DNA of 64,000 nt from assembly GCF_016342705.1 (NCBI RefSeq), contig NZ_JAEINV010000001.1, positions 62,001 through 126,000 of the forward strand. The letters are read 5' to 3'. The position numbers and the translations under genes were made by a program. Shown in pieces: positions 16,376 through 47,995 of this stretch; the first letter of the stretch is position 1, and every line of letters starts with the position of its first letter. Origin of the DNA: Lutibacter sp. Lineage in GTDB: Bacteria; Bacteroidota; Bacteroidia; Flavobacteriales; Flavobacteriaceae. Under the pieces are notes generated by a model, which was given only the letters and a program-made list of their open reading frames with translations, had not been told where the DNA came from and did no database searches.

Positions 16376-16448
16376 CGCGGGATAGAGCAGTAGGTAGCTC
16401 GTCGGGCTCATAACCCGAAGGTCACTGGTTCGAGTCCAGTTCCCGCTA
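16376..16448 (+). tRNA. Initiator tRNA-Met (CAT anticodon)
   Basis: Folds as a standard cloverleaf of 73 bases: acceptor arm from CGCGGGA, D arm GAGC/GCTC, anticodon stem TCGGG/CCCGA around CTCATAA, T arm ACTGG-TTCGAGT-CCAGT, and a 3' arm TCCCGCT plus A. The three consecutive G:C pairs in the anticodon stem and the unpaired first base (C1 opposite T72) are the marks of an initiator rather than an elongator tRNA. CCA is not encoded. The 3' half is also the attachment site of the integrase remnant behind it. Confidence 0.95.
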
Positions 16449-16449
16449 C
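16407..16449 (+). repeat. attachment-site copy A (43 bp, in tRNA-fMet)
   Basis: The bases from the anticodon loop through one base past the tRNA end are identical to 47953-47995 on the minus strand. Starting in the anticodon loop and ending at the tRNA 3' end is the usual extent of a tyrosine-recombinase attachment core. Confidence 0.85.
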
Positions 16450-16471
16450 AAAAGCAAAAAAGCGAACAAAC

Positions 16472-16504
16472 AAACGGTTTAGATTGATCTAAACCGTTTT
16501 TTTT
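16472..16504 (+). terminator. Terminator between tRNA-fMet and the integrase remnant
   Basis: Twelve-base stem AAACGGTTTAGA (16472-16483) with 16488-16499, a 4-base loop, and eight T from 16497 to 16504. The T-run touches the integrase ATG at 16505. Confidence 0.8.
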
Positions 16505-17167
16505 ATGTTCAATTTAAATGAAAGTATTATATTTGAGTACCAAAATGAACACGTTTTGGAACACGATTTTCAAGTGAAAAAGAATTATTCAAATCCCAAA
16601 ATTTATGATTCTAATGGGGATTTATCCAAACGTTGGTATGTCTATTTTTCTTACAGAAATCCGGAAACTGGGAAGTTAAAACGGATTACTCCCTTTTATG
16701 GCGAAGCCAATAAACACAAAACAAAGTCCGATCGGATGTTTGTGTTAGCTGTTTATAAACATAAAATTAAAGAGTTATTGAAAAGAGGGTACAATCCTTT
16801 TGAAAAAAATGCCGAACTTTTCCAAAAAGAGCAAGCTGCTTTGAATACAGCTAATGTTGCAATAGTAGAAAAAAATGTTCTAACACCCATTGTTGAAAAG
16901 GTAGCACAGGTTTCGCCAATCGTTGCAACAAATGCAAAAACTATAGCGGAAGCCTTTGAATTTTCGCTAAACCTTAAAAAGAAACTGGTAAAGGAGATTA
17001 CATTAAAAGCCTATACGAGCAAATCCACAGCATTGCAACAATTTATTGCAACGAACTATCCCGAGGTGAAATATATTGATCAACTGACAAAAAGCATTGT
17101 GGTTCAATTTTTAAATAGCATCCTAGAAAATTTACTAATGAAGATGCTGCTGAGGCGAATTCTTTAA
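16505..17167 (+). pseudogene. Truncated tyrosine integrase (N-terminal part)
   Basis: 220 residues resembling the N-terminal part of Bacteroidetes tRNA-targeting site-specific integrases. It has an arm region with KIYDSNGDLSKRWYVYFSYRNPETGK (a typical segment near residues 33-58) and then a helical core-binding part (TIAEAFEFSLNLKKKLVKEITLKAYTSKSTALQQF). The reading stops before the catalytic domain: no R...HxxR...Y is present here or in the next 390 bases. The last dozen residues (after LNSIL) no longer look like the family, so the break lies near 17125. It begins 56 bases after the tRNA attachment site. It cannot be an active recombinase. Confidence 0.8.
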
Positions 17168-17207
17168 TAATTGGTAAAAAGAAATGTTACTTTGCCAATT
17201 CAGCCTC
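17152..17207. repeat. Imperfect palindrome at the integrase break
   Basis: GAGGC (17152) pairs with GCCTC (17203-17207), and inside it AATTGGTAAA (17169-17178) pairs with TTTGCCAATT (17191-17200) with one G:T. It directly follows the point where the integrase similarity ends. It could be a terminator-like structure or the end of an element. Confidence 0.4.
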
Positions 17208-17471
17208 GAAATTAATCATTTTAACTGTGAAATAAAACGTGATTAAATTATGATAAAAAAATATCACAAAAATATTTTGGATATTATTCACTTTAAAACA
17301 TCAATAAAATGATTTTTCTTCGATTAATTTGAAGTTAATAATTAATACAAAATATTGAAAAATGGTTGTAAATTGTATGTTTATTTAATATCAATTTGTA
17401 CTTTTTAAAATTTATCCTAATTAAGCAATTTACCCTTTCCATAAAAAATCTAAATATTAAATAAAATTTCA
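17208..17471. other. AT-rich spacer without visible gene
   Basis: About 260 bases between the integrase remnant and the tkt promoter. No open frame of use, no RNA gene and no repeat was seen; strongly AT-rich. Confidence 0.5.
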
Positions 17472-17499
17472 TATATTTGTAAGTGTAAAAATAACACTT
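17472..17499 (+). promoter_or_regulatory. tkt promoter with AraR-like operator
   Basis: TATATTTG (17472-17479) is an exact -7 box. It is followed at once by the palindrome AAGTGT-N7-ACACTT (17481-17499), which would cover the transcription start and block it when bound. The same palindrome occurs before susC, araB and the GH97 gene. Confidence 0.75.
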
Positions 17500-47254: not shown

Positions 47255-47258
47255 AAGT

Positions 47259-47277
47259 AGTGTTTAAAGGACACTTG
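47259..47277 (-). promoter_or_regulatory. AraR-like operator before GH97
   Basis: TAGTGT-N7-ACACTT, one mismatch in the half-sites, with TGTA after it as at the araB site. It lies directly in front of the GH97 start and links this gene to the arabinose regulon although it is on the other strand. Confidence 0.65.
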
Positions 47278-47706
47278 TAAAAATACATAAAATAAATTAA
47301 ATTTAAATATGGTTGTTTTTATATTTAATATTGATTCTATTTTAATTAAAACGAATTAAATAAACTCTTTTATTAACTATTTTTCGCTATAATTGAGTAA
47401 AAATTTATTGAATAAATCAATCTAAAATAGGAATACGATTTTGCAAATATTTAAATTAATATAACTTAAAGAGATAAAAAATAGATTGCTATAATTTGTT
47501 TTATTCTCTATACCGTTATAATTGGAGTAGGTATTAAAAATTTCAAAAAGAATTGATCTATAACTCTGGAAGAAAGGAAAAAAAACGTAAAATAAAATTA
47601 TCTCCTGTGTACACTTATAATATATGAATTTATTTAATTCCCGATCCTAATTAATATGGTTCAACAGTATAAAATATTCAGCATAGCTTTATTCTGGCAC
47701 GAAAAA
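47278..47706. other. AT-rich gap with no visible gene
   Basis: About 430 bases. It holds no usable open frame and no RNA gene. A lone operator half ACACTTATAA is at 47611-47620 without its partner. Probably decayed remains of the element that carried the integrase next to it. Confidence 0.5.
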
Positions 47707-47901
47707 TTATTTATATATGGCCTCAAAAGGAATTACATTTAATGATTGGCCTTTAATATGGACTAGACACCAACGTTTGGATAAATCCCCATTAGCATCA
47801 TAAATTTTGGGATTTGAATAATTCTTTTTCATAGACAAATCGTATGCACTTTCGTATGCATTTTGACTATGAAAGATAAGAAATTTGTTAAAATTAAACA
47901 T
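47707..47901 (-). pseudogene. Tyrosine integrase remnant (first 64 codons)
   Basis: The minus-strand frame begins MFNFNKFLIFHSQNAYESAYDLS and continues with KNYSNPKIYDANGDLSKRW, the same arm segment as in the remnant at 16505. 63 bases (47769-47831) match 16575-16637 with one mismatch. After RW the similarity ends and the last 20 residues are unrelated, so only the extreme N-terminus is kept. It starts 52 bases behind a copy of the tRNA-Met 3' end, the same arrangement as in the first remnant. The N-terminal 22 codons differ clearly between the two, so they come from two related elements rather than one duplicated piece. Confidence 0.8.
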
Positions 47902-47930
47902 AAAAAAACAGTTTAGGAAGCCAAACTGTT
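47902..47930 (-). terminator. Hairpin between attachment copy B and integrase remnant
   Basis: On the minus strand AACAGTTTGG pairs with CCTAAACTGTT (one bulge), followed by a T-run that touches the ATG at 47901. It mirrors the terminator at 16472-16504. Confidence 0.7.
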
Positions 47931-47952
47931 GATTTACATTGTTTTAAAAATA

Positions 47953-47995
47953 GTAGCGGGAACTGGACTCGAACCAGTGACCTTCGGGTTATGAG
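47953..47995 (-). repeat. attachment-site copy B (43 bp of tRNA-fMet, inverted)
   Basis: Exact copy, on the minus strand, of 16407-16449: the 3' half of the initiator tRNA from the anticodon loop on. The 5' half of a tRNA is absent (the bases beyond 47995 do not match), so it is not a functional gene. Confidence 0.85.

What the first reader, a model, noticed from the sequence alone, without database searches (positions are those of the whole stretch)
16376..47995. Arabinose module bracketed by inverted tRNA-fMet integration scars
A 43-base piece of the initiator tRNA region (16407-16449) recurs exactly on the minus strand at 47953-47995. Behind each lies a hairpin and the N-terminus of a related tyrosine integrase. 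Only the first copy is a whole tRNA. In normal integration the copies are direct; here they are inverted and both sit on the integrase side. The simplest explanation is two related elements in tandem at the tRNA, then an inversion, with the 31.5 kb arabinose module between the scars. It suggests that the arabinose and xyloglucan modules were brought together by integrase-linked events.
Basis: partly seen in the sequence, partly recalled or inferred. Interest (0 to 1): 0.85.

Follow-up and report, generated by a model that had tools for sequence, protein, structure and literature searches.

The report
Sugar-gene island scarred at a tRNA
Two mirrored scraps of a start-tRNA gene in this bacterium look like the two ends of one past DNA insertion, one of them later turned round, which shows how blocks of sugar-digesting genes can be added and rearranged beside a tRNA.

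Summary
The 43-bp 3' part of tRNA-fMet (16407-16449) recurs exactly, inverted, at 47953-47995, and nowhere else in the genome at up to 2 mismatches. Each copy is followed by a terminator-like hairpin and an integrase N-terminus.

The interpretation needs revision. Scar 1 is an attL: tRNA, core, then an integrase whose catalytic half is gone. Scar 2 is an attR-type hybrid. Its xyloglucan side is an element end (P-arm): 106 aligned columns to a sister element's P-arm, score 113 against 34 for shuffles. Its arabinose side is the old sequence that still follows tRNA-fMet in the closest relative, 90% over 549 bp. So both scars look like products of one attP x attB crossover. In 299 family genomes this is the only same-contig inverted pair found.

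The arabinose module has the same orientation in three relatives, in one of them (G008) beside the tRNA without scars. So it shows no net inversion. More likely the attR end with the xyloglucan block turned round in a second rearrangement. The order of the two events is not resolvable here.

The parts
16376..16449 (+). intact initiator tRNA-fMet; its 3' part 16407-16449 is the attachment core, beginning at CTCATAA in the anticodon loop (attL)
   Evidence: ARAGORN; element-borne fMet cores in relatives lose tRNA identity at, or within two bases of, this point
16472..16504 (+). terminator-like hairpin and T-run between core and integrase start
   Evidence: read directly; similar layout in relatives' attL sites
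16505..17167 (+). int1: integrase fragment; 16505-17128 homologous to intact relatives, catalytic half missing
   Evidence: 47-64% aa identity to eight intact relatives of 429-473 aa, E down to 1.6e-85; an intact relative matches a PHROG integrase, 1.9e-23
17558..45269 (+). arabinose module: transketolase, transaldolase, NrtR/AraR-type regulator (20264-20953, minus strand), TonB-dependent receptor, SusD, GH43, GH127, arabinofuranosidases, MFS and SSF transporters, kinase, aldolase, AraA, epimerase, LigB-type gene
   Evidence: Pfam; from the regulator on, same order and orientation in G008 and (in part) G004 and G031
45335..47254 (-). GH97 glycosidase at the end of the arabinose block; beside it also in G008, G004, G019, G031
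   Evidence: Pfam
47310..47447 (.). junction x: between the end of the G008 homology (47309; G019 runs to 47326) and the start of the G007 homology (47448)
47448..47952 (-). Z: ancestral downstream flank of tRNA-fMet, holding an old integrase remnant (47901-47770) and hairpin (about 47908-47931)
   Evidence: with the core, 549 bp at 90.2% to G007 C9:366539-367084, directly downstream of its tRNA-fMet
47953..47995 (-). second, inverted copy of the 43-bp core (attR-type)
47996..48105 (-). P-arm: distal end of an integrase element, next to the core on the xyloglucan side
   Evidence: score 113 v. mean 34 shuffled against G002 C13:199k, 71 v. 28 (G144), 60 v. 34 (G317), 47 v. 26 (G225); 0 of 300 base-composition shuffles reach each; alignments
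   Evidence: Pfam; homologues of 4 (G008 C2) and 5 (G004 C8) of the 5 genes in C3:117030-126901 on other contigs

Best explanation
The scars are the two reciprocal products (attL and attR) of one site-specific crossover in the anticodon loop of tRNA-fMet. It joined an attachment site of an integrase element (P-arm, core, int1) to the resident site (tRNA, core, Z). Before that, the tRNA was followed by Z, a decayed older element of the same integrase family, as it still is in G007. The copies are inverted because a second recombination, not recognisably site-specific, happened as well: it joined the GH97 end of the arabinose block (47310-47447) to the far end of Z. It turned round the attR end together with the adjoining xyloglucan block: at least about 17.5 kb (47.4 to 65 kb, the last kb outside the window), at most the 108 kb up to C3:217761. 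It did not turn the arabinose block. In the simplest version one island carried both modules (int1, arabinose, GH97, xyloglucan, P-arm; about 49 kb). Shown: attL and attR anatomy, P-arm, relation of Z to the G007 tRNA flank, orientation of the arabinose block in relatives. Inferred: that both scars come from one element, that the arabinose block was its cargo, and the extent of the inverted piece. The order is not resolvable: attP x attB first and then the inversion, or insertion through the second place first and then an integrase-made inversion, give the same product.
For: Element-borne fMet cores lose identity with the tRNA at, or within two bases of, the same point. The P-arm beside scar 2 matches P-arms of sister elements: no shuffle of 300 reaches the score in 4 of the 22 flanks scored (alignments). 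Z plus core is 90.2% over 549 bp to the G007 tRNA flank, close to the 89.0% of the stretch 15008-16637 between these two genomes in the same call. The arabinose block has the same orientation relative to backbone genes in G008, G004, G031. The backbone right of the island (C3:217820 to 278790) is broadly colinear with G007, apart from insertions and one local swap, so no larger inversion is needed. Fourfold-site GC skew in gene sense: backbone minus genes -0.262 [-0.312,-0.211], xyloglucan block (minus strand) -0.019 [-0.152,+0.124], minus genes of the block to its right -0.149 [-0.333,-0.100]; so the xyloglucan block does not look like long-settled minus-strand DNA. A transposase remnant (26 aa, 73%; IS3-type by my reading) lies at the right edge of that block, C3:127177-127254, just outside the window. 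Direct elements of the family exist: G037 C1 (21.5 kb) and this genome's own C26 (24 kb at the other tRNA-Met).
Against: G008 carries the arabinose module beside tRNA-fMet with no integrase match and no second core listed, so that module may be an old resident rather than cargo; the history would then need at least one more rearrangement. DNA identity of the arabinose block to G008 (75-87% by segment, 85.7% over its right 10 kb) is near the 84.6% of the era-tRNA stretch, which does not suggest recent arrival. G007's tRNA core differs from the G000 cores at two paired T-stem positions, so scar 2's core is not identical to the presumed ancestor. No repeat links the two proposed breakpoints of the larger version (x and C3:216.3-217.8k): longest inverted match 11 bp, reached by 169 of 300 random stretches. 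P-arm type and integrase type did not pair strictly in the elements looked at. The skew signal rests on 9 genes; at all third positions, minus genes of neighbouring zones also lean the same way, though less. The shuffles keep base composition only.
Confidence: 0.52

Rival explanations
1. Integrase-made inversion in cis. The element (or its remnant) already lay in the chromosome with its attP inverted and 31.5 kb from tRNA-fMet; integrase recombined attP with the tRNA attB, flipping 16407-47995. The same two core copies could in principle flip back.
For: Exchanging the ends at the two cores would recreate both tRNA-core-Z, as in G007, and P-arm-core-int1, a regular attP. A tyrosine integrase makes inversions between inverted tRNA-derived att sites in vitro (PMC5495485, passages read). 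An intact integrase of the same family is present at the other tRNA-Met on C26.
Against: Requires the arabinose block to have been reversed before the flip, against the orientation in G008, G004 and G031. Int1 itself is truncated, and the C26 integrase sits at a site with a different core, TTCATAACCCGGAGG.
Confidence: 0.2
2. Residue of a tandem array: scar 1 and scar 2 come from different elements at tRNA-fMet. Deletions removed what lay between them, and an unrelated rearrangement turned one junction round. Close to the first reader's view.
For: Tandem direct arrays of this family are real: G002 C13 has three core-integrase units, and G037 C1 has a second integrase-like start after its attR.
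Against: No third core remains in the genome at up to 2 mismatches. The integrase-side flank of scar 2 is the old tRNA flank, which a single integration explains without a further element.
Confidence: 0.15
3. Old-resident arabinose module plus block moves: the arabinose block was always in this polysaccharide zone; an integrase element with xyloglucan cargo came in later, and transposon- or homology-driven moves placed the blocks as they are.
For: G004, G008 and G031 hold the module in the same zone and orientation; transposase remnant at C3:127177-127254; identity to G008 near that of the backbone.
Against: After integration it still needs two inversions, or one inverted transposition, to place Z beyond GH97.
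Confidence: 0.1
4. Assembly artefact: the contig was mis-joined inside the 43-bp core, and the real genome has tRNA-core-Z and P-core-int1.
For: The two isomers differ only by which ends meet at an identical 43-bp stretch.
Against: 43 bp is shorter than usual read lengths (recalled), and the flanks beyond the core are only about 80% alike. No reads were available to test it.
Confidence: 0.03

Closest known systems
Tyrosine-integrase islands integrated in the 3' half of a tRNA gene (ICE, IME or genomic-island type; definition recalled), including tandem accretion
   Same: tRNA restored by the element's core, integrase next to the core, direct elements in relatives (G037 C1, 21.5 kb) and in this genome (C26, 24 kb)
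   Different: Here attL and attR are inverted on one contig, the integrase is truncated, and no conjugation or mobilisation gene showed among the 30 window proteins scanned
Tripartite ICE (ICE3) of Mesorhizobium (PMC5882170; abstract and introduction read)
   Same: A circle that recombines with the chromosome at more than one place leaves its parts apart, divided by chromosomal DNA; here the divider would be Z plus core, about 0.55 kb
   Different: ICE3 uses three integrases with three att pairs; here only one junction is recognisably site-specific, and nothing shows that the parts can reassemble
Integrase-mediated inversions between tRNA att sites in Thermococcus (Int of pTN3, PMC5495485; passages read)
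   Same: Inverted tRNA-derived copies bounding a chromosomal segment; integrase able to invert between such copies
   Different: Shown there by in vitro assay; here the adjacent integrase is broken and the arabinose block shows no net inversion against relatives
Polysaccharide utilisation loci exchanged between Bacteroidota (recalled; exchange also stated in the start of the abstract of PMC13188876, seen in the listing)
   Same: Sugar-degradation cargo with TonB and SusD genes on an integrase element (G037)
   Different: The G037 element is a 21.5-kb tRNA-fMet element; no conjugation gene showed among the 10 of its 13 listed ORFs (100 aa or more) that were scanned

Membership tests
tRNA-integrated island with tyrosine integrase | core identical to the 3' part of a tRNA, tRNA kept whole | tested here: met
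tRNA-integrated island with tyrosine integrase | integrase gene adjacent to attL | tested here: met
   int1 fragment starts 55 bases after the tRNA; family assigned through intact relatives, PHROG integrase 1.9e-23; truncated here
tRNA-integrated island with tyrosine integrase | distal P-arm joined to a second core | tested here: met
tRNA-integrated island with tyrosine integrase | attL and attR in direct orientation bounding the element | tested here: not met
   inverted; so the present locus is a rearranged island, not an intact element
Integrative and conjugative element | relaxase and conjugation genes | tested here: inconclusive
   none among the 30 window proteins (15398-62542) scanned with Pfam; the rest of the 108-kb island was read as ORFs only, not scanned
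Polypartite ICE (ICE3-like) | two or more integrases each with its own attP/attB pair | tested here: not met
   one attachment core only; no shared sequence beyond chance at x and C3:216.3-217.8k
Integrase-mediated inversion | segment between inverted att copies reversed relative to relatives | tested here: not met
   arabinose block in the same orientation in G008, G004, G031
Integrase-mediated inversion | both isomers present in the population | not testable with these tools
   needs reads or PCR

The most novel reading that the evidence does not exclude
The 31.5-kb arabinose module at the initiator tRNA is a switchable segment: an integrase crossover in the anticodon loop between two inverted core copies flips it in cis while keeping the tRNA whole, with an intact sister integrase (C26) acting in trans. 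That would be site-specific inversion of a polysaccharide-utilisation locus at a tRNA.
Probability: 0.1. Interest if true: 0.7.

Novelty: new variant of a known kind. Interest (0 to 1): 0.42.

Why it matters
It gives a readable case of how sugar-degradation islands accumulate beside a tRNA in this bacterial family: an integrase group that uses the anticodon loop of two Met tRNAs, cargo of polysaccharide-degradation or capsule genes, decay of the integrase, then local rearrangement that leaves attL and attR mirrored. The core and P-arm definitions let such elements be mapped across the family, and the inverted pair is a rare exception that PCR or long reads can test for live inversion.

Tried and rejected
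Rejected: inversion of the arabinose segment relative to relatives. Rejected: recent transfer of the whole arabinose block, which I first suspected from 93.1% at 45000-47309; over larger segments identity to G008 is 75-87%. Rejected: scar 2 as a native attP of the Z element; Z is truncated in G007 in the same way. Considered and left open: a circular-permutation reading. Block A (C3:185-216k) and the xyloglucan genes 117030-126901 are neighbours in G004 C8 and G008 C2 but far apart and in the other order here. The flanks of that locus lie on different contigs in G000, G007 and G006, so no empty site could be shown. Looked for repeats at the proposed breakpoints: none beyond chance; self-comparison of C3:70-230 kb shows the scars and repeats at about C3:137-144k, inside the 7375-aa ORF. 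A MAFFT alignment of P-arms used wrong strands and ranges and was dropped; pairwise alignments replaced it. The genus was not named: the one scan of genome contigs returned one locus, a Flavobacteriaceae MAG contig of the same length as G028 C16. Genes of C3:127-185k were not found at 45% identity or more in the fetched loci longer than 9 kb (the 7375-aa ORF was left out of that search). A working label 'SusC' for C3:223452 in my notes and in the header of one script was never tested and is not used. Labels such as IS3-type, PorP-like and elongator are my reading, from no family search.

Paper searches: none of the listed titles and abstract starts describes an inverted attL/attR pair of this kind in Flavobacteriaceae. 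Beyond listings I saw the abstract and introduction of PMC5882170 and passages of PMC5495485.

Full report
OBSERVATION. The window is G000:C3:62001-126000 of a 3.63-Mb draft genome in 35 contigs. tRNA-fMet lies at 16376-16449. Its last 43 bases recur exactly and inverted at 47953-47995, and these are the only two places in the genome at up to two mismatches. The two scars align over 188 of 234 positions (80%), through a terminator-like hairpin into an integrase N-terminus. Int1 (16505-17128 homologous) matches eight intact relatives of 429-473 aa at 47-64% identity; the second fragment covers about 44 codons, 47901-47770; no other piece of this integrase was found in C3:70-230 kb at better than E = 0.05. 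An intact relative matches a PHROG integrase (1.9e-23); Pfam gave no family for it, and neither Pfam nor NCBIfam gave one for int1. The C-terminal ends printed read ...RHTYITKLYREL...GHSTMTALEKYL..., which I recognise from recall as the tyrosine-recombinase R-H-x-x-R...H...Y pattern.

WHERE THE CROSSOVER IS. In the element-borne fMet cores, identity with the tRNA is lost at, or within two bases of, the C of CTCATAACCC, in the anticodon loop. A sister group does the same at a second tRNA-Met(cat), which I take for the elongator, with TTCATAACCC. Direct elements are visible. G037 C1 has attL at 299035 and attR at 277569, both minus, with TonB, SusD, GH2 and GH43 genes between. This genome's own C26 has attL near 26446 and attR near 2409, both minus, and an intact integrase; the genes scanned between them are mostly for polysaccharide and capsule synthesis. 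G002 C13 holds three core-integrase units, all plus.

WHAT SCAR 2 IS. Going outward from its core, the xyloglucan side (47996 onward) is a P-arm. Against the P-arm upstream of the G002 C13:199k core, the alignment spans 106 columns and scores 113 against a shuffled mean of 34; G144 scores 71 v. 28, G317 60 v. 34, G225 47 v. 26. No shuffle of 300 (base composition kept) reached the score in these 4 cases. The other 18 of the 22 flanks scored, of which 4 are true tRNA 5' halves, gave 0.03 to 0.99 (alignments). The arabinose side (47448-47952), together with the core, is 90.2% identical over 549 bp to G007 C9:366539-367084, the sequence directly after tRNA-fMet in the closest relative. The stretch 15008-16637 gives 89.0% between the same two genomes. 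So scar 2 is P-arm, core, old chromosomal flank: an attR. Scar 1 is tRNA, core, integrase: an attL. They are what one attP x attB crossover leaves.

WHY INVERTED IS ODD. In 299 family genomes (core pattern, up to one mismatch), by my hand count of the printed table 76 have two or more copies: 65 with all copies on one strand and 11 mixed, this genome included. In the 10 other mixed genomes the opposite-strand copies lie on different contigs, so their orientation is undefined. This genome is therefore the only one with an inverted pair on one contig at that stringency. Limits: only three members of the genus are in that sample, some pairs are probably true tRNA duplicates, copies on one strand may also be on different contigs, and not all positions were printed. 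In the genus search, second copies on the tRNA's own contig are direct in G004 (94 kb away), G037 and G003 (a 31-bp piece).

WHAT MOVED. araA occurs in 7 of 38 genus genomes, this one included. In G008 the block from the AraR-type regulator to GH97 lies beside tRNA-fMet in the same order and orientation, followed directly by the backbone gene homologous to C3:223452; transketolase and transaldolase are replaced there by other genes. G004 holds the block on the tRNA's contig, about 155 kb away, and G031 beside backbone genes of the same zone, both in the same orientation; in G031 the tRNA is on another contig. G019 and G018 hold it on contigs where I did not see the tRNA, and G016 was not examined. 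G008 has no match to int1. So the arabinose block shows no net inversion. On the right, the backbone from C3:217820 on is broadly colinear with G007. Of the xyloglucan block, 4 (G008) or 5 (G004) of the 5 genes in C3:117030-126901 have homologues together on other contigs; of its four left genes only the alpha-galactosidase was matched there, at some distance.

TWO EVENTS. Integration of an element at tRNA-core-Z gives tRNA-core-int1 ... P-core-Z, all direct. To reach the present order, a second recombination must have joined the GH97 end (47310-47447) to the far end of Z, turning round the piece that holds P-core-Z and the xyloglucan block. Inserting the same circle through that second place first, and then letting integrase join attP to the tRNA, gives the same product. 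The order therefore cannot be read from this sequence. The extent of the turned piece is uncertain: at least the xyloglucan block, at most to C3:217761. Fourfold-site GC skew favours the smaller one. In gene sense, backbone minus genes are at -0.262 [-0.312,-0.211] (85 genes), the xyloglucan block at -0.019 [-0.152,+0.124] (9 genes), and minus genes of the block to its right at -0.149 [-0.333,-0.100] (19 genes). A transposase remnant lies at the right edge of the xyloglucan block, C3:127177-127254. No repeat joins the two proposed breakpoints of the larger version.

AGAINST THIS. G008 shows that the arabinose block can sit at this tRNA with no scar, so it may be an old resident. Identity to G008 is ordinary. 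G007's own tRNA core differs from the G000 cores at two T-stem positions. At all third positions, minus genes of neighbouring zones lean the same way as the xyloglucan block, though less. A misassembly inside the 43-bp core cannot be excluded without reads. One element for both scars is the simplest reading but is not proven.

KNOWN KINDS. It is a rearranged tRNA island of the tyrosine-integrase kind. It fails the direct-repeat test for an intact element, the two-att-pair test for a polypartite ICE (PMC5882170, abstract and introduction read), and the reversed-segment test for an integrase-made inversion (PMC5495485, passages read). It may still work like the last one.

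Noticed in passing
C3:133383-155510 (window 71383-93510, beyond the window): A single 7375-aa open reading frame on the minus strand with internal repeats (about C3:137-144k), next to an ORF that I read by eye as PorP/SprF-like (132329-133342).
   Followed up: no
G000 C26:2409-26446 (L186, L071): A 24-kb element at a second tRNA-Met with direct cores, intact integrase and mostly capsule or polysaccharide synthesis genes among the 10 proteins scanned.
   Followed up: partly
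G008 C3:635-638k (L081): Between tRNA-fMet and the arabinose block G008 has a sigma-factor-like gene and a gluconate kinase/6-phosphogluconate dehydrogenase-like fusion (my reading) in place of transketolase and transaldolase: different sugar-phosphate genes at the same place.
   Followed up: no
G000 scar 2 (47770), G007 C9:366850, G016 C161:115921: Several truncated integrase remnants end at about codon 44-47, just after a KRW motif; G000 and G007 share it by descent, G016 may be independent.
   Followed up: no
C3:185060-216344 and 117030-126901: Two blocks that are neighbours in G004 C8 and G008 C2 lie far apart and in the other order here, which would fit a circular intermediate.
   Followed up: partly
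G007 C17:53009 and 70151: Two core-bearing copies in the same orientation 17 kb apart on a contig other than that of tRNA-fMet.
   Followed up: no
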